Source: Pseudorhodoplanes sinuspersici
Lineage (GTDB): Bacteria > Pseudomonadota > Alphaproteobacteria > Rhizobiales > Xanthobacteraceae
Direction: 5' to 3'
DNA: 42,640 nucleotides
NCBI GenBank assembly: GCA_945862935.1
Contig: CAMBBO010000003.1
Location: 1 to 42,640, forward strand
Position 1 is the stretch's first letter, and each line of letters begins with the position of its first letter. The notes under the pieces are model-generated. The model searched no databases and was not told the DNA's origin. It worked only from the letters and a program-made list of their open reading frames with translations. Both the position numbers and the translations under genes were made by a program. Shown in pieces: positions 2,436-19,199 of this stretch.

Positions 2436-2541
2436 TTTTTCGAAATGCCCCAGTTTTGGCGGGAACTGGAACGAAGTGGTTACCGCAAGCTTAACCCAGC
2501 GAATTGCGTTTTACCGTTTCGCAACCTGTTGGGAGTGGCAC

Positions 2542-4863
2542 ATGCAGACCCGAAAGATCCTGAACGGCGCCATCATGGGAGGATTGATCCTTCTCGGCAC
2601 CACAGCTTTGACAAGCCCGAGCTTCTCGGCCGGCAAAGGAGTCGGCGTTAGCCTCGGCGGAATTTCAGTCGGCGTTACCGTCGGCGGCGGTGGCGGAGCC
2701 TCGATCTCCACCGGCGGCCTCGGCGGCGCAGTTGGCTCCATCACGTCCGGCGTTAATGGCGCGGTCGGCGGCGTTGCCGGCGGCCTCGGTAATGCAAGTG
2801 GCGCGGGTGGCGGATTCTTCTCGGGCGGTGTTGGAGGCGCATCCGGCGGGGGTTCGGGCGGCGGCTTCTTCAGCGGCGGCTTCGGGCAGCCCATTTCACC
2901 GTCGGTCGGAGTCAATCGAAAAACCCGCAGCGTGAATGTTGGCGGCGACAACGGCGTCACCGTTGGCACTCGCTCATCGAAGCGCAAGCTCGGCGTCGCG
3001 GCCAAGGTTGGCCCCGATACGACGCGCGGCGCAAAGATCGGCACCGAGCTGAATGGAAATCGCGGCGCGACACCGATCACGACCGAGGCGAACGCCTTTA
3101 ACGCACCCGGCACCGATGCTGGCGGCAGCAAGGGCAATATCGCCGCGACCGATGTCGGCGTTCTCAACCGCGCTGGATCGTCCACCGGCAATACCGGCGG
3201 TAAGACCCCATTGGCTGGCACCAACGTTGGCGTTCTCAACAAGGACAGCAAGACCGGCGACACGAACGGACAATCGCAGCTTGGAGCCACCAATGTCAGT
3301 GCGCTCAACAACGGCGGCGAAACCGGCAATACCGGCGGCGTTAAGTCTCCGCTCGCAGGAACGAATGTCGGCGCGCTGAATAACGGCAGCAAAACCGGCG
3401 ACACCGGCACGAACGACGCGGCTCTTGGCGGCACCAATGCCGGTGTGCTGAACGGCCCCGGCAGCCAGACCGGCAACGGCGGCAATTCGGCTGCGAAGCC
3501 GGGCTTCGGGCTTGCATCCACCAATGCTGGCGCTCTCAACGGCGCGGGTAGCAAGACCGGAGACAGCGGCAATCGCACCAATCCGAATGGTATCGCCTCG
3601 ACCAACGCTGGCGTCCTGAACGGTGCAGGCTCGACCACGGGCGACACCGGCAATGCGAACGGCCGCACTATTCCAATCGGCTCGACCAATGCCGGCGTGC
3701 TGAATGGCGCGAACACTCAGACGGGTGACAACGGCAACGGCGCGCCGTCGTCGCTTGCATCAACCAACGCCGGCGTTCTCAACCAGGCCGGCAGCAAGAC
3801 GGGCGAAAGCGGAAACGGCAATGGCCGGTTCTTGCCCCTCACCGCGACCAACGCGGGCGTGCTGAACGGCCCGAACAGCAATACCGGTGACAGCGGCAAT
3901 GCGGCTCCGTCCGCTCTTGCTGCCACCAATGCCGGTATCCTGAACGGCGCAAACTCAAACACAGGTGACAGCGGCAACGGCACCAGCCGTCTCGTTCCGC
4001 TGGCCTCCTCGAACGCCGGCATCCTGAACGGTGCCGACAGCAACACCGGCAATTCGGGCGATCCGGGCGTCGCGGCACTTGCTGCGACCAATGCCGGCAT
4101 CCTGAACGGCGCGGAAACCTCGACCGGTCAGACCGGAACGGGAACTGGCCTTACGCCGCTCGCGGCAAGCAACATCGCGGCGCTGAACGACGTGGGTAGC
4201 AAGACCGGCGACAATGGCGGCGCTGGCAACCTGCTGTCGAACAACACCGCGCTGCTGAACGGCACGGATACGTCAACCGGCAATACCGGCGGCACAGGCA
4301 ACAATCCGATTGTTTCGGGCAACACCGCCATCCTTGACGGCGCTGGCTCGACCACCGGAACCGACGGCACGAACAGCAACAACTTCCCGGTTGTGACCGA
4401 CAACACCAGCATCCTCGGCGGCAATAACACCAACACGGGTGGCAATGCCGGCGACAACGGTTCGACGATTACCTCGGTCCTCGTCAGCATCCTTGCGGGC
4501 GAAGACGGTGGCGCCGGAACGCCGGGTCTGCCGGGCTTGCCGGGGCTTCCCGGAACGCCGGGCACACCGGGTACGAACGGCAACGATGGAAATGACGGCA
4601 CCAACGGTACGAACGGCACCAACGGTAGCGGCGGCGGCGGCGGTGGTGGCGGCGTCGAAATCGGTGGCAACACGTTCAACTACAGCAGCGGCGATGTGAG
4701 TGGTGCTGTTGCGGGCCTGAGCGATGCCGACCGGTCCCGGCTGTGGCGGCGCTGCCTGCTGATCCTCAAGGACCCGAAGCGTTATAAGGAACGTGACGTG
4801 TGGGTCTGCCGCGAGATCGCGAAGAAGCGGGATCTCAAGAAGGAAGCCGCAAACAAGCGCTAA
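2542..4863 (+). CDS. secreted Gly/Asn-rich tandem-repeat protein with collagen-like Gly-X-Y tract
   Basis: ORF 2431..4863; likely start MQTRKILNGAIMGGLILLGTTALTSPSFSAGKG (signal peptide). About 17 repeats of (S/A)TNAGVLNGAxSxTGDSGN..., then GTPGLPGLPGLPGTPGTPGTNGNDGNDGTNGTNGTNG, poly-Gly, and a basic C-terminus with two Cys. Confidence 0.8.
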   Translation: MQTRKILNGAIMGGLILLGTTALTSPSFSAGKGVGVSLGGISVGVTVGGGGGASISTGGLGGAVGSITSGVNGAVGGVAGGLGNASGAGGGFFSGGVGGASGGGSGGGFFSGGFGQPISPSVGVNRKTRSVNVGGDNGVTVGTRSSKRKLGVAAKVGPDTTRGAKIGTELNGNRGATPITTEANAFNAPGTDAGGSKGNIAATDVGVLNRAGSSTGNTGGKTPLAGTNVGVLNKDSKTGDTNGQSQLGATNVSALNNGGETGNTGGVKSPLAGTNVGALNNGSKTGDTGTNDAALGGTNAGVLNGPGSQTGNGGNSAAKPGFGLASTNAGALNGAGSKTGDSGNRTNPNGIASTNAGVLNGAGSTTGDTGNANGRTIPIGSTNAGVLNGANTQTGDNGNGAPSSLASTNAGVLNQAGSKTGESGNGNGRFLPLTATNAGVLNGPNSNTGDSGNAAPSALAATNAGILNGANSNTGDSGNGTSRLVPLASSNAGILNGADSNTGNSGDPGVAALAATNAGILNGAETSTGQTGTGTGLTPLAASNIAALNDVGSKTGDNGGAGNLLSNNTALLNGTDTSTGNTGGTGNNPIVSGNTAILDGAGSTTGTDGTNSNNFPVVTDNTSILGGNNTNTGGNAGDNGSTITSVLVSILAGEDGGAGTPGLPGLPGLPGTPGTPGTNGNDGNDGTNGTNGTNGSGGGGGGGGVEIGGNTFNYSSGDVSGAVAGLSDADRSRLWRRCLLILKDPKRYKERDVWVCREIAKKRDLKKEAANKR
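3142..4440 (+). repeat. degenerate protein-level tandem repeat array, about 17 units of 24-29 codons
   Basis: Aligned by eye from the translation: ATDVGVLNRAGSSTGNTGG..., STNAGVLNGAGSTTGDTGNANGRTIPIG, STNAGVLNGANTQTGDNGNGAPSSLA, ATNAGILNGANSNTGDSGNGTSRLVPLA, etc. Confidence 0.85.
4516..4652 (+). repeat. collagen-like Gly-X-Y tract followed by poly-glycine codons
   Basis: Translation GTPGLPGLPGLPGTPGTPGTNGNDGNDGTNGTNGTNGSGGGGGGGG. Confidence 0.85.
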
Positions 4864-4880: not shown

Positions 4881-4917
4881 AAAAAAACCGGCCGCCGAAA
4901 GGCGGCCGGTTTCGTTT
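4881..4917. terminator. bidirectional intrinsic terminator between convergent genes
   Basis: Stem ACCGGCCGCC (4887-4896), loop GAAA, GGCGGCCGGT (4901-4910); A-run 5' (4881-4887) and T-rich 3' side (TTCGTTTT). Confidence 0.9.
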
Positions 4918-4936: not shown

Positions 4937-6328
4937 TCAGAGCCTCGCGTTGATCGAGAACATCACGACGTTGCGGTAATAATCCAGCACGCCGGTGCCG
5001 CTCGATCCGAAATTCACCCGGCGGTAATCGACGCCAGCGGTGACGAACGGGTTGATGAAATACTTGAGCGAAGCGAGCGGGCTGATGCTGCGATCGACGC
5101 GATTGCCAAGCCGGAAATCATCCTCCACATAGGAGACGCCGCCGCCGACCAGCCATTGCGGATGGAAGCGCCAGTCGAGACGCGCAGCCGCAGTGCTTTC
5201 GATAACGCTCACGCCCTGCGTCGCCGTGATGACGTTCATCAGAGCGGATTCTTTTGCCTCGCGGCTACCGAGCACGGTCGCTGTCCAGTTCGGCGCAAGT
5301 GCGAAGGCGAGAGCACCGCCATAGGTGTAGGTCGAGATATCTTCAAAGCCGAAGCCGGCATATTCCTGACGCATGTAGCCGGCATAGACTTCGCCCTTCA
5401 CGCGTGCGCTCGGCCCGTCTTCGAGCAGGATGCCGCCAACGGCGCGATAGCCGCGTGAATCGAAATCGTTGAGTGCGTTGGTGTTGAAGTCGCGGCGATT
5501 GCCGGTCCATTCCACGAACACGCTGGTCAGCGGAGCAACCACATAACCGAAGCGTTGCGTGACCGCGCCGATTTCGCCGTTGCGGTATTCCTGGCTGGAA
5601 ATCGTACCGTCCGTGAGCAGCGGATCCTGATAATGGACCCAGAGATTGGCGACACCGGTTGACGACCAGAACCGGCCGAAGCGGCGGTTCAGCGCGCCCG
5701 CCGCCTGGAACGTGTCATAGGCGATCGGTTCGGTGGGGGTCGGAGTTGCAGTGCCGTTGAACAATTCGGATTCACCCGAACCGCGATCTTCGTGCGCGCG
5801 GGTGTAACGGAAGCGGCCGATGACCTGCGTATCGTTGTCCGGCATCCAGAGGCTGTTCAGCGCGGCGCCGCCGTTGACCTGATTTTCGGTGATGTAAGTG
5901 CGGTGCTGGCGGTCTTCGATATAGCCCTGCGCGACAACAGTTGCGCGTTCACCGGCCCAGCGAAGTGCTGCTTCCGGGCGCACGAACGCGACCCAATCGC
6001 TGCGGCGATTTGAATTCGTTGCGAAGACGTTGTCATCGTAATACGCGCCCGCGGTGACGCCCGGATAAAAGACGGTGGCGTTGCCAAGCGCGATGCCGGC
6101 CGGCTGCGCCGGCGTGTTCCATGGATCGACCGCAGGAGCAGGATTCGCGTCGCCTTTGCGGCGTTGCGTTACCGGCTCAGGCGCGCCTTGTGTGGTCGGC
6201 TGAAAGCCATCGACCGACACGGGGGCGGACAAACGGCCGCTCGGTGAATCGACTTGCGCCATGGCGGCACTCGACAAAGCCAGCGTGCTCGCACTCGCGG
6301 CCAACGCTACCAATACAACTGACTTCAT
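4937..6328 (-). CDS. outer membrane beta-barrel protein (BBP2-like)
   Basis: Start at MKSVVLVALAASASTLALSSAAMAQVD (signal peptide) with purine-rich RBS upstream; alternating amphipathic strands with aromatics; PGVTAGAYYDDNVFATNSNRRSDWVAFVRPEA typical of the family. Confidence 0.8.
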   Translation of the reverse strand: MKSVVLVALAASASTLALSSAAMAQVDSPSGRLSAPVSVDGFQPTTQGAPEPVTQRRKGDANPAPAVDPWNTPAQPAGIALGNATVFYPGVTAGAYYDDNVFATNSNRRSDWVAFVRPEAALRWAGERATVVAQGYIEDRQHRTYITENQVNGGAALNSLWMPDNDTQVIGRFRYTRAHEDRGSGESELFNGTATPTPTEPIAYDTFQAAGALNRRFGRFWSSTGVANLWVHYQDPLLTDGTISSQEYRNGEIGAVTQRFGYVVAPLTSVFVEWTGNRRDFNTNALNDFDSRGYRAVGGILLEDGPSARVKGEVYAGYMRQEYAGFGFEDISTYTYGGALAFALAPNWTATVLGSREAKESALMNVITATQGVSVIESTAAARLDWRFHPQWLVGGGVSYVEDDFRLGNRVDRSISPLASLKYFINPFVTAGVDYRRVNFGSSGTGVLDYYRNVVMFSINARL

Positions 6329-6560
6329 CGACGCCCCCTCAACTGCACCAAATCGCTTTCCGCCGCTTGCACGCGTATCCCAAGCGCACCGCAGGATTCC
6401 GGTCGTTGAAAACCGGTATTTCCTTAAGGTCGGAAAACTATAGCCACAGCTTCGCGCTACCCGTGTCATCGGGCGAAATACGCTGAGAGGAGCGTGGATA
6501 AACGGCTAATAAGCTGTGCAGGGAACCGGGAAAATTGAGTTCCAGTATTTGCAACCAACT

Positions 6561-10889: not shown

Positions 10890-11960
10890 ATGATCGACCG
10901 GCAGGCCGCCTATTCCGGCACCAAAGATGTTCCAACCGCGCTGACATTCGACGTCGCGCGGCTCGGGCAATATCTGGTGGCCAGCGTACAGGGTTTTGCA
11001 GGTCCGCTGACGGCAAAACAATTTCGCGGCGGGCAATCCAATCCGACTTATCTTCTGGAAACACCTTCGCGGCATTACGTGCTGCGCCGCAAGCCGCCGG
11101 GAAAGTTGCTGCCTTCCGCCCATGCGGTGGACCGTGAATTCCGGGTGATCTCGGCGTTGCACGCGCAAAGGTTTCCGGTCGCGCGGCCGCTGATCTATTG
11201 CGCGGACGAAAGCATTGCGGGCACGGCTTTTTATGTGATGGATTTCGTGGACGGCCGCGTGTTCTGGGAGCCGTCAATGCCCGGCTCAAATGCAAAGGAA
11301 CGCGCGACAATATTCGACGCGATGAACGCAACGCTGGCGCGGCTGCATTCCTTCGATCCGTCGGCTATCGGCTTGGCCGACTTCGGCAAGGGTGAGAATT
11401 ACGTCGCGCGGCAGGTGGAACGCTGGTCGAAACAATATCGCGCATCCGAAACCGAACGCATTCCCGAAATGGACAAACTGATCGACTGGCTGCCTGAGCA
11501 CCTGCCGCCCGCGCAACCTACGCGGCTCGTCCACGGTGATTTCCGGCTCGACAATTTGATTGTCGCAAAAGATGCGCCGTGCATCGAAGCCGTGCTCGAC
11601 TGGGAACTATCGACGCTCGGCGATCCGCTCGCCGATTTCACCTATCACCTGATGCAATGGCACATGCCGCATTCGGATTCAGGCGCTGGCACGGCATCGC
11701 TGATGGGTCACAATCTTGCGGCACTCGGCATCCCGGCGATGACGGATTATGTGGACGCATACGTCGCGCGCACCGGACTCGATCCCCGTCCGCACCTGCC
11801 GGTGTATCTTGCCTATAATTTCTTCCGGCTCGCCGCGATCCTGCAAGGCATTGTCGGGCGTGTGCGCGACGGCACGGCAACAAGCGAACACGCGACATCG
11901 CGCGCGGAAATGGTTCGCCCGCTCGCGGTGAGGGCGTGGGAATTTGCGCAGATCGCCTAG
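10890..11960 (+). CDS. phosphotransferase family protein (APH/ACAD10-like kinase fold)
   Basis: 356 aa; FRGGQSNPTYLL, YVLRRKPPGKLLPSAHAVDREFRVI, LVHGDFRLDNLIV, AVLDWELSTLGDPLADF. Confidence 0.9.
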   Translation: MIDRQAAYSGTKDVPTALTFDVARLGQYLVASVQGFAGPLTAKQFRGGQSNPTYLLETPSRHYVLRRKPPGKLLPSAHAVDREFRVISALHAQRFPVARPLIYCADESIAGTAFYVMDFVDGRVFWEPSMPGSNAKERATIFDAMNATLARLHSFDPSAIGLADFGKGENYVARQVERWSKQYRASETERIPEMDKLIDWLPEHLPPAQPTRLVHGDFRLDNLIVAKDAPCIEAVLDWELSTLGDPLADFTYHLMQWHMPHSDSGAGTASLMGHNLAALGIPAMTDYVDAYVARTGLDPRPHLPVYLAYNFFRLAAILQGIVGRVRDGTATSEHATSRAEMVRPLAVRAWEFAQIA

Positions 11961-16397: not shown

Positions 16398-17729
16398 TCA
16401 GCCGCCTTCTTTTTTCGCAGCACGGCCGACCACCGTGAACAACATTCCGCCGTCGAGCAGGCGTTTGGCAACGCGTTTGACGTCGGCCAGCGTCACCGCC
16501 TCAATCAGCCCGTTGCGGCGGTCGATATAATCCATGCCGAGACTATCGAGCTGGATCTGCACCAGCTGCGACGCGATCTTGGTCGAGGTGTCGAAATTCA
16601 GAGCGTATGAACCCTTGAGATAGGACTTGGATTTTTCCAGTTCGTCCGCCGTCGGACCTTCTTCGGCCAGCCGCTTGATCTCGGCATGGATCAGGGTCTG
16701 CGTTTCGTTCACCCGGTCCGAGCGCGTCGCGGTACCGCCCTGGATCAGCGCCGTGTAATTGAGTGGCAGAAGATAAGTGTAGATCGAATAGGCAAGGCCG
16801 CGCTTCTCGCGCACTTCCTTGTAGAGGCGCGAGGAGAACGAACCGCCGCCGAGAATGTGATTGACGATGAAGGCAGCGATGAAGTCCGGGTCCTTGCGCG
16901 CGATGCCCGGACCACCAAAGGTCACAACCGCTTGCGGCACGTCGAGATCGACGAACACGCTCTTTCCAGCGTCCGCCATTACGGCGGGCTCGCTCGGACG
17001 CAGATCGCCCTTCGCGGGCAGCGAGCCGAAAATCTTGTCGAGCGTCGTCTTGAGAGTTTCCGGATCAATATCGCCAACAACCGCGACGGTGAGGCGCTCG
17101 CGGGTAATCACACGGCGCGTGTAGTCACGTAGGTCATCGGCGGTAATCAGCGGAACCGATTCCAGCGTGCCGTTAAGCGGCTGGCCATAAGGATGATTGG
17201 GAAACGCCGTGCGCCACCACAGCCTGCTCGCGATGTCGTTCGGGCTGGTGGTCTCCCGGTTCAGCGCGGTCATCATCTGCGCGCGAACGCGCTCCAGCGG
17301 TTCGGCATCGAAGCGCGGCGCGGTCAGCGACATCCGCAGCAACTCAAACGCTTCGTCCTTGCGCTCGGTCAGAACGCGCACCGATCCGTAGAATTCATCG
17401 CGCTGCGAGCGAAAGCGCAGCTCGATGGCGTTGCGCTCAAGGCGCTGCTGGAACGCAGACGAATCCAGATCGCCCGCACCCTCATCCAGCATTCCAGCGG
17501 TGAAATAGCCGACGCCCGGCTTCACCGCGGGATCCTGATTGGCGCCACCTTTTACGGCAAATTCGAGCGAGATCAGCGGCACTGAGGAATCGCGGACGAG
17601 CCACGCCTCGATCCCTCCGGGGCTGACGACGCGCTCGATCTTGGTGGCGTGCGCGTGACCTGCAAACGCAACACTCGCCAGCGCGACGATCGCGAAACGG
17701 AGAGAACGGAACGCGGGGGTGAATGTCAC
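16398..17729 (-). CDS. M16 family peptidase-like protein, apparently lacking the zinc-binding HxxEH
   Basis: 443 aa; M16 fold (LISLEFAVKGGANQDPAVKPGVGYFTAGMLDEGAG, SFSSRLYKEVREKRGLAYSIYTYL) but YFTAGML replaces HFLEHM. Confidence 0.88.
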   Translation of the reverse strand: MTFTPAFRSLRFAIVALASVAFAGHAHATKIERVVSPGGIEAWLVRDSSVPLISLEFAVKGGANQDPAVKPGVGYFTAGMLDEGAGDLDSSAFQQRLERNAIELRFRSQRDEFYGSVRVLTERKDEAFELLRMSLTAPRFDAEPLERVRAQMMTALNRETTSPNDIASRLWWRTAFPNHPYGQPLNGTLESVPLITADDLRDYTRRVITRERLTVAVVGDIDPETLKTTLDKIFGSLPAKGDLRPSEPAVMADAGKSVFVDLDVPQAVVTFGGPGIARKDPDFIAAFIVNHILGGGSFSSRLYKEVREKRGLAYSIYTYLLPLNYTALIQGGTATRSDRVNETQTLIHAEIKRLAEEGPTADELEKSKSYLKGSYALNFDTSTKIASQLVQIQLDSLGMDYIDRRNGLIEAVTLADVKRVAKRLLDGGMLFTVVGRAAKKEGG

Positions 17730-19081
17730 GAGCGTTTGTCCTCCGCGCGGGTAATTTGCTTGATGAGATAGCCTGTGACCGAGCGGCGCTTGTCGAGATA
17801 TTGCCGCGCAACGTCACGCACGGTGTCGGCCGTCACTTTCCCCACGCGGTCGGCCCAGCTTTGCACATCGGCTACGGTCGAGCCTGTGGTCAGCGACGCG
17901 CCATACCAGCGCGCGAGCGTCGCCTGGTTGTCCTGCGCGAAAACGGTGTCGGCCACGAGACGTGTCTTCGCCAGATCAAGCTCGTCGGCTGTCACGCCCT
18001 TGTCGATGACCTCGGCAATGACGGCGTCGATTGCGTCTTCAACCTGGGGAAGCGTCACGTTCGGCTTCGGCACGCCGTTCACGCCGAACTTGGTGTCGTC
18101 GAGCGATGTCCCCTGATACCAGGCACCGGCACTGACCGCGAGACCCTTATCGATCACAATGGCCTTGTAGAGGCGGCTGTTCGATCCGTGTCCGAGAATT
18201 TGCGACAGCACTTCAAGCGCCTCGGATTCACCGGCCTTGGCAGTCGATGACGATGGAACGAGATAGGAGCGCTGCAGGCTCGGCTGCACCACACGCGGGT
18301 CGGCAAGCGTTACCGTACGCGCTGCGGTCGGCTCCGGTTCTTGCGGGCGCTTGCGCGGCGCAACTTCGGCGACGCGCTTCACCTTGCCGTAGGTTTCGTT
18401 CGCGAGCTTTTTGACCTCATCGGCGGTTACGTCACCGGCGACAACAAGAATGGCGTTGTTGGGGGTGTAAAAGCGCCGGTAGAACGCAAGCGCACCGGCG
18501 CGGTCGAGTTTCTCGATCTCGTGGCGCCATCCGATCACCGGCTTGCCATAAGGATGATTGAGATAGAGCGCGGCATCCATCTGCTCGCCAAGCCGCGCGC
18601 CGGGATTATTGGCAACGCGCATGTTCTGCTCTTCGAGCACGACGTTGAGTTCGGGCTTCACGACATCGTCGGTGAGCACCAGTCCGGTCATGCGGTCGGA
18701 CTCGAACTCCATCAGCATCTTCAGCTTCTCCTTGGAGATGCGCTGGTAATAGCCGGTGTAGTCGCTGGAGGTGAATGCGTTTTCCTGGCCTCCAACCGTC
18801 CCGATGACTTGCGAGAAGCGGCCGGCCGGATTTTTTTCGGTGCCCTTGAACATCAGATGTTCGAGGAAATGCGCGAGGCCGGAATGTCCCGGCTCCTCGT
18901 CGGCAGCGCCGACGCGATACCAGACCATGTGCGTCACGACTGGCGTGCGGTGATCCGAAATGACGACGACCTCAAGGCCGTTCGCCAGTTTGAAATTCGA
19001 GACGACCGGCGCAGCAGCAGCATCGCCCCGCGCGGTCAGGAAAAGACACGCCGCGGTAGCGAGAATGACGATCGATCGCAT
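17726..19081 (-). CDS. M16 family zinc metallopeptidase, catalytic
   Basis: Start MRSIVILATAACLFLTARGDAAA (signal peptide); HSGLAHFLEHLMFKGTEKNPAGRFSQVIGTVGGQENAFTSSDYTGYY contains HxxEH; 4-nt overlap with the downstream paralogue. Confidence 0.93.
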   Translation of the reverse strand: MRSIVILATAACLFLTARGDAAAAPVVSNFKLANGLEVVVISDHRTPVVTHMVWYRVGAADEEPGHSGLAHFLEHLMFKGTEKNPAGRFSQVIGTVGGQENAFTSSDYTGYYQRISKEKLKMLMEFESDRMTGLVLTDDVVKPELNVVLEEQNMRVANNPGARLGEQMDAALYLNHPYGKPVIGWRHEIEKLDRAGALAFYRRFYTPNNAILVVAGDVTADEVKKLANETYGKVKRVAEVAPRKRPQEPEPTAARTVTLADPRVVQPSLQRSYLVPSSSTAKAGESEALEVLSQILGHGSNSRLYKAIVIDKGLAVSAGAWYQGTSLDDTKFGVNGVPKPNVTLPQVEDAIDAVIAEVIDKGVTADELDLAKTRLVADTVFAQDNQATLARWYGASLTTGSTVADVQSWADRVGKVTADTVRDVARQYLDKRRSVTGYLIKQITRAEDKRS

Positions 19082-19199
19082 TGATAAAATCCTGCAGGGC
19101 GACGCTGTTGCCCGGACCTGAAACGCGCGGCGGATCATTCCACCGGCGGTCTTCGACTAAACACGCCCCCGAAGCCCGGCCGTTCGTACCCGATCCGAA

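What the first reader, a model, noticed from the sequence alone, without database searches (positions are those of the whole stretch)
2542..4863. Secreted protein built from about 17 Asn/Gly repeats plus a collagen-like tract and a small Cys-containing C-terminal segment
Seen: a signal peptide, a Gly-rich N-terminus, about 17 copies of a motif (S/A)-T-N-A-G-(V/I)-L-N-G-x-x-S-x-T-G-(D/N)-S-G-N, about a dozen Gly-X-Y triplets, poly-Gly, then ADRSRLWRRCLLILKDPKRYKERDVWVCREIAKKRD. I do not recognise the repeat as a named family. Inference: the regular spacing of hydrophobic V/L after N-A-G and T-G-D/N-x-G-N turns would suit a beta-solenoid or stacked fibre, with the collagen tract as a trimerisation stalk and the C-terminal segment as an anchor or cap.
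Basis: partly seen in the sequence, partly recalled or inferred. Interest (0 to 1): 0.72.

Follow-up and report, generated by a model that had tools for sequence, protein, structure and literature searches.

The report
Barrel-paired Asn/Gly repeat surface protein
A secreted bacterial protein made of 17 Asn/Gly-rich repeats belongs to an unnamed family whose gene sits tail-to-tail with one particular outer-membrane barrel in all 12 loci of that barrel found, so the two probably work together to put a repeat fibre or matrix protein on the cell surface.

Summary
ORF 2542-4863 (+) encodes 773 aa: an apparent signal peptide, a Gly-rich start, exactly 17 Asn/Gly repeat units, 12 Gly-X-Y triplets, poly-Gly and a basic C-terminal segment with the only two cysteines. 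No Pfam, NCBIfam or PHROG family matches. Relatives in about a dozen Hyphomicrobiales genomes, in several families, show what is conserved: the N-x-G-V-L-N core, a poly-Gly/V-x-IGGFSGTY element and a Cys-x17-Cys helical hairpin. The collagen tract is not conserved. All 12 loci of this barrel clade have the convergent repeat gene, in at least 6 different gene neighbourhoods; none of 52 other barrels in the tree does. The barrel model is confident (pLDDT 82, 18 strands). The repeat model is weak (pLDDT 52), with about one strand per repeat in the first units. Best reading: a two-gene surface module in which the barrel exports or anchors a repeat fibre/matrix protein. Export versus anchoring, and whether polysaccharide is involved, is unresolved. 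It is neither Fap nor curli by the tests available.

The parts
2530..2534 (+). GGGAG, probable ribosome-binding site for the ATG at 2542
   Evidence: read from sequence
2542..4863 (+). repeat protein gene, 773 aa
   Evidence: homologues in 12 further loci
2542..2631 (+). apparent Sec signal peptide (MQTRKILNGAIMGGLILLGTTALTSPSFSA), residues 1-30
   Evidence: read from the translation; homologues also start with signal-like sequences; no signal-peptide predictor was available
2632..2901 (+). Gly-rich N-terminal region ending in the conserved FFSGG element
   Evidence: F109 F110 S111 G112 invariant in alignment A3
3142..4476 (+). 17 repeat units, consensus A-S-T-N-A-G-V-L-N-G-A-G-S-x-T-G-D-S-G-N, spaced 23-29 residues
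4516..4623 (+). 12 Gly-X-Y triplets (GTPGLPGLPGLPGTPGTPGTNGNDGNDGTNGTNGTN); not conserved in most homologues
   Evidence: sequence; weak C1q match E=0.0058; alignment A3
4630..4668 (+). poly-Gly plus V-E-I-G-G element (GGGGGG-V-x-IGGFSGTY in the family)
   Evidence: GGG...IGG invariant in 13 members
4696..4860 (+). C-terminal basic helical hairpin with Cys738 and Cys756, the only two cysteines
   Evidence: pLDDT about 88-93 over residues 731-760; pI 10.3
4884..4913 (.). 13-pair hairpin with T-tracts, probably a terminator shared by the two convergent genes
4937..6328 (-). outer-membrane beta-barrel (BBP2_2, PF10082), 18 strands predicted, disordered 76-residue N-terminal tail; partner gene. 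The longest ORF starts at 6469, but the signal-like start is the ATG at 6328

Best explanation
The gene encodes the structural subunit of a two-gene cell-surface module. The repeat protein is exported by Sec (inferred). Its N-x-G-V-L-N repeats form short strands that stack, within and perhaps between molecules, into a beta-rich fibre or matrix material (inferred; weak model). Its conserved C-terminal part (poly-Gly, IGGFSGTY, disulfide-type helical hairpin) is the handle that stays with, or is recognised by, the dedicated BBP2_2 outer-membrane barrel encoded tail-to-tail with it. The barrel carries the protein across the outer membrane or holds it there (the genetic linkage is shown; the direction of action is inferred). 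The tract between repeats and C-terminus, collagen-like here, is a replaceable spacer. The likely role is adhesion or biofilm matrix (inferred).
For: All 12 distinct loci of the barrel clade (window; L076-L085; L093/L122) have the convergent repeat gene immediately 3', with 42-111 nt between stops in the 11 measured. None of the other barrels examined does. In a tree of 63 barrels the paired ones are one branch, SH-aLRT 100, one change of label. The pair is the only thing shared between the window, L082, L083, L085, L122 and the Pseudolabrys-type loci: at least 6 neighbourhoods. In 398 genomes of the order, the clade barrel and a strong match to the C-terminal domain occur in the same three genomes. 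C-terminal element: Gly-rich stretch, I-G-G and two Cys invariant in 13 members. The barrel model is a confident 18-stranded barrel. A second repeat protein without a barrel beside it (L039) sits in a genome that has a barrel-paired copy elsewhere, as expected if the barrel can serve in trans.
Against: Nothing tests the function directly. Convergent genes are not co-transcribed. The barrel's nearest NCBIfam models are polysaccharide-export-associated proteins (weak, below cut-off), and its fold resembles general porins and the alginate exporter AlgE rather than a known protein exporter. The repeat model is low-confidence. Part of the co-occurrence is common descent.
Confidence: 0.55

Rival explanations
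1. The barrel exports a polysaccharide, and the repeat protein is a matrix protein that binds and cements that polysaccharide through its basic C-terminus and repeats; the two are linked because they build one matrix.
For: Barrel family BBP2_2, weak sub-threshold matches to the PEP-CTERM/EpsL exopolysaccharide models TIGR03016 and TIGR03014; AlgE among the fold matches; C-terminal pI 10.3.
Against: No glycosyltransferase or polysaccharide polymerase is shared by the 12 loci; the pair is the only shared unit. None of the flanking window genes tested is a capsule or exopolysaccharide gene.
Confidence: 0.25
2. A trimeric adhesin with a collagen triple-helix stalk and beta-solenoid head.
For: 12 Gly-X-Y triplets in the window and a C1q match; similar tract in L010; some strands per repeat.
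Against: The tract is replaced by unrelated low-complexity sequence in most homologues; no trimeric autotransporter anchor or other Pfam domain; C-terminus is predicted as a two-helix hairpin, not a membrane strand.
Confidence: 0.07
3. The two genes are merely neighbours by common descent with no working link.
For: Few deep lineages; convergent, not an operon.
Against: Flanking genes differ in at least 6 neighbourhoods while the pair stays; the label sits on one branch of the barrel tree, 11 of 11 rows against 0 of 52.
Confidence: 0.08
4. A member of the Pseudomonas Fap or the curli amyloid systems.
For: Imperfect Asn/Gly repeats with variable linkers beside an outer-membrane barrel.
Against: No curlin-repeat or other Pfam hit in any member scanned; only two genes shared; barrel 18-stranded, whereas FapF is a 12-stranded plugged trimeric barrel with a coiled coil (PMC5557850).
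Confidence: 0.03

Closest known systems
Pseudomonas Fap system (FapC fibre, FapF barrel; PMC3792158, PMC5557850)
   Same: Secreted repeat protein with conserved repeats and variable linkers, plus an outer-membrane barrel
   Different: No further gene is shared by these loci; no recognised Fap repeat; barrel predicted 18-stranded with no coiled coil, against 12-stranded, plugged and trimeric; 17 units instead of about 3 repeat regions
Curli (CsgA/CsgB with CsgG)
   Same: Asn/Gly-rich strand-turn repeats of a little over 20 residues (curli period recalled)
   Different: No curlin Pfam match; partner is a single-chain barrel, not CsgG; extra Gly-rich head and Cys hairpin
BBP2_2 (PF10082) barrels; exopolysaccharide-associated TIGR03016/EpsL models
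   Same: Barrel is a clear PF10082 member
   Different: This clade sits beside a repeat protein, not in a polysaccharide cluster; TIGR matches are below cut-off
Bacterial collagen-like proteins
   Same: 12 Gly-X-Y triplets in this copy
   Different: Tract absent or replaced in most homologues
Mycobacterial MPTR/pentapeptide_2 repeats (recalled)
   Same: Asn-x-Gly spacing
   Different: No Pfam match; 23-29 residue period, not 5

Membership tests
BBP2_2 (PF10082), for the neighbour gene | Profile match above the curated cut-off | tested here: met
   177 bits against a cut-off of 23.7; 18-stranded barrel model
Fap system | FapB/C-type repeats | tested here: inconclusive
   no Pfam or NCBIfam match in the members scanned, but no direct comparison with a FapB/C profile was made
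Fap system | FapF-type 12-stranded plugged barrel with N-terminal coiled coil | tested here: not met
   18 strands, disordered N-terminal tail; FapF not among the 50 best fold matches
Fap system | FapA/D/E genes in the locus | tested here: not met
   only barrel and repeat gene shared across loci
Functional amyloid (behaviour) | Cross-beta fibres, dye binding | not testable with these tools
   needs purified protein or cells
Curli | Curlin repeats (PF07012) | tested here: not met
   no hit up to E=1 in A3 members or E=0.1 in 6 more relatives
Pentapeptide_2/MPTR | PF01469 match, 5-residue period | tested here: not met
Collagen-like protein | Gly-X-Y tract | tested here: met
   12 triplets at 4516-4623; C1q match E=0.0058
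Collagen-like protein | Tract conserved as a functional stalk | tested here: not met
   replaced in most homologues
Phage tail fibre | Similarity to phage proteins | tested here: not met
   no PHROG match for the whole protein, no phage record

The most novel reading that the evidence does not exclude
A previously undescribed two-component outer-membrane secretion/assembly system of Hyphomicrobiales: an 18-stranded BBP2_2 barrel that exports or anchors a self-stacking Asn/Gly repeat fibre recognised by its C-terminal IGGFSGTY/Cys-hairpin signal, perhaps evolved from polysaccharide-type barrels.
Probability: 0.3. Interest if true: 0.75.

Novelty: new variant of a known kind. Interest (0 to 1): 0.52.

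Why it matters
If right, it gives a barrel family known only as 'putative porin 2' a defined protein partner, and adds a minimal two-gene surface-fibre system that can be tested by simple deletions. It also defines a C-terminal Cys-hairpin domain shared by many otherwise dissimilar Gly-rich secreted proteins in this order, a handle for annotating proteins that no library searched here names.

Tried and rejected
Whole-protein search of relatives missed all homologues, probably through low-complexity handling; searching with the C-terminal 66 aa found them. The N-terminal 195 aa gave one spurious hit to a secretin. The genome-contig scan with the C-terminus alone found nothing; the scan with the barrel profile worked. 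Foldseek with the repeat model: no match, model too weak. PDB profile searches with the repeat, the C-terminus and the barrel: nothing significant. Rfam: none in the window. Phage origin: no match. Plasmids hold only distant barrels. Literature searches found nothing on this pair or repeat. The two structure jobs went to the full repeat protein and the barrel; a cropped repeat alignment (A6) was prepared but not folded.

Full report
WHAT IS THERE. The ORF at 2542-4863 (+) encodes 773 residues: an apparent signal peptide ending ...SPSFSA, a Gly-rich region, 17 repeat units at residues 204-621, 12 Gly-X-Y triplets (659-694), poly-Gly, and a basic C-terminal segment (pI 10.3) that holds the protein's only two cysteines. 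The unit consensus is A-S-T-N-A-G-V-L-N-G-A-G-S-x-T-G-D-S-G-N; the leading N is present in 16/17 units and the L in 17/17. Twenty relaxed core motifs stand against a mean of 2.3 (maximum 9) in shuffles of the same composition. Codons at identical residues of different units agree only slightly more than the gene's codon usage predicts (0.53 against 0.46), so this is an old array whose protein pattern has been kept, not a recent DNA expansion.

NO KNOWN FAMILY. No Pfam or NCBIfam model matches the protein, and no PHROG matches the whole protein. The same holds in Pfam and NCBIfam for the homologues scanned. The only PDB signal is collagenous sequence, best C1q (E=0.0058).

RELATIVES. Whole-protein searches fail, probably because of low complexity, but the C-terminal 66 residues find relatives with the same architecture. 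Full-length members align over the N-terminal FFSG element, the repeats and the C-terminus. In 13 members the Gly-rich stretch, I-G-G and both cysteines are invariant, usually Cys-x17-Cys. AlphaFold gives this end as a two-helix hairpin with pLDDT about 90. The repeat core N-x-G-V-L-N varies: L083 and L122 have A-x-V-D-V-G-V-L-N without the S-x-T-G-D part. The collagen tract is not conserved: L010 has a similar tract, L009/L082 has LPTLPT, L085 GGPGD, L083 GNPGG, the rest Asn/Thr-rich sequence. It behaves as a replaceable spacer.

THE PARTNER. Facing the repeat gene tail-to-tail lies a BBP2_2 (PF10082) outer-membrane barrel (177 bits). The nearest barrel relatives in GTDB genomes, ten loci with 45-51% identity, each have a convergent repeat protein directly 3'; they include Methyloligella halotolerans and MAGs labelled Pseudolabrys, Rhodoplanes and Rhodopseudomonas. 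A separate search of 398 genomes of the order added G408. That makes 12 distinct loci of 12, window included. The more distant barrels, from three searches, have none. In a tree of 63 barrels the 11 paired barrels included form one branch with SH-aLRT 100 and one change of label (the Methyloligella barrel was left out because its frame changes). An all-against-all comparison of flanking ORFs shows that the pair is the only unit shared between the window, L082, L083, L085, L122 and the Pseudolabrys-type loci. Stops are 42-111 nt apart in the 11 loci measured, and here a 13-pair hairpin lies between them. In the 398-genome samples the clade barrel and a strong C-terminal-domain match fall in the same three genomes; one further genome has a weak, 211-residue member without the repeats. 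Limits: the neighbour scan used a motif and, for most loci, 1.5 kb flanks, so a neighbour of another kind or further away would be missed; part of the co-occurrence is common descent; the tree was a quick one and warns of long branches.

STRUCTURE. The barrel model is confident (mean pLDDT 82, 304 of 464 residues at 90 or more): 18 strands after a disordered N-terminal tail of about 76 residues. Fold matches are general porins, Occ/OprD-type channels, TonB-dependent receptors and the alginate exporter AlgE, all with modest TM-scores; FapF is not among the 50 best. The repeat protein model is poor (mean pLDDT 52, six sequences). It shows about one strand per repeat in the first units at pLDDT 65-80, and nothing in the PDB matches. 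Beta-solenoid or stacked strands remain plausible, not shown.

HOW IT MOST LIKELY WORKS. Shown: the protein family, its conserved parts, and the fixed genetic link with one barrel clade. Inferred: Sec export; the barrel as dedicated outer-membrane channel or anchor; the C-terminal element as the recognised handle; strand stacking of repeats into a fibre or matrix; adhesion or biofilm as the role. The main rival is that the barrel exports a polysaccharide and the repeat protein is its matrix protein. The barrel's weak, sub-threshold similarity to polysaccharide-export-associated models and the AlgE fold match keep this open. No polysaccharide gene is shared by the loci, which counts against it.

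COMPARISON. In plan it works like Fap or curli (repeat subunit plus outer-membrane protein), but it is not a member of either by the tests made. Fap has FapB/C repeats, FapF (12-stranded, plugged, coiled coil; PMC5557850) and further genes (PMC3792158); the barrel and the further genes are not met, and the repeat was tested only through Pfam and NCBIfam. The barrel is a true PF10082 member. I found no paper that describes this pair; the library holds only open-licence papers.

DISTRIBUTION. Patchy: none of seven other genomes of the window's genus has it, and the close barrel is in 2 of 150 genomes of the family, window included. GC3 of both genes is like that of their neighbours, so there is no sign of recent import.

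Noticed in passing
L020-L024, L031-L033, L044 (genus g23 of the same family): Secreted proteins with Gly-rich start, different repeats (GNIADVNANVLGRRGV...), long GPGGPGG tracts and a related Cys hairpin end (CTGVLSEPRAYDAGIVALCRDL), not beside a barrel where seen: a wider Cys-hairpin superfamily of Gly-rich secreted proteins.
   Followed up: partly
L004/L045, L016/L017/L034, L025, L127: Short (about 210-330 aa) secreted Gly-rich proteins with the same C-terminal hairpin but without the Asn/Gly repeats; G296 has two matches close together.
   Followed up: partly
L085 5900-7380 and 9800-10900 (Methyloligella halotolerans): Both genes of the pair change reading frame in this draft assembly; sequencing error or decay cannot be told apart here.
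   Followed up: partly
L039 9774-11723 (G130:C6): Second repeat protein in a genome that already has a barrel-paired one, with no barrel beside it.
   Followed up: partly
L048, L049, L060: The sister clade of barrels lies next to a calcineurin-like phosphoesterase and a small secreted protein, a different conserved context.
   Followed up: partly
window 16398-19138 (-): Two adjacent M16 peptidase-family genes.
   Followed up: no
window 10890-11957 (+): Phosphotransferase (APH) family kinase followed by further ORFs on the same strand; perhaps a cell-wall sugar kinase pair, not checked.
   Followed up: no
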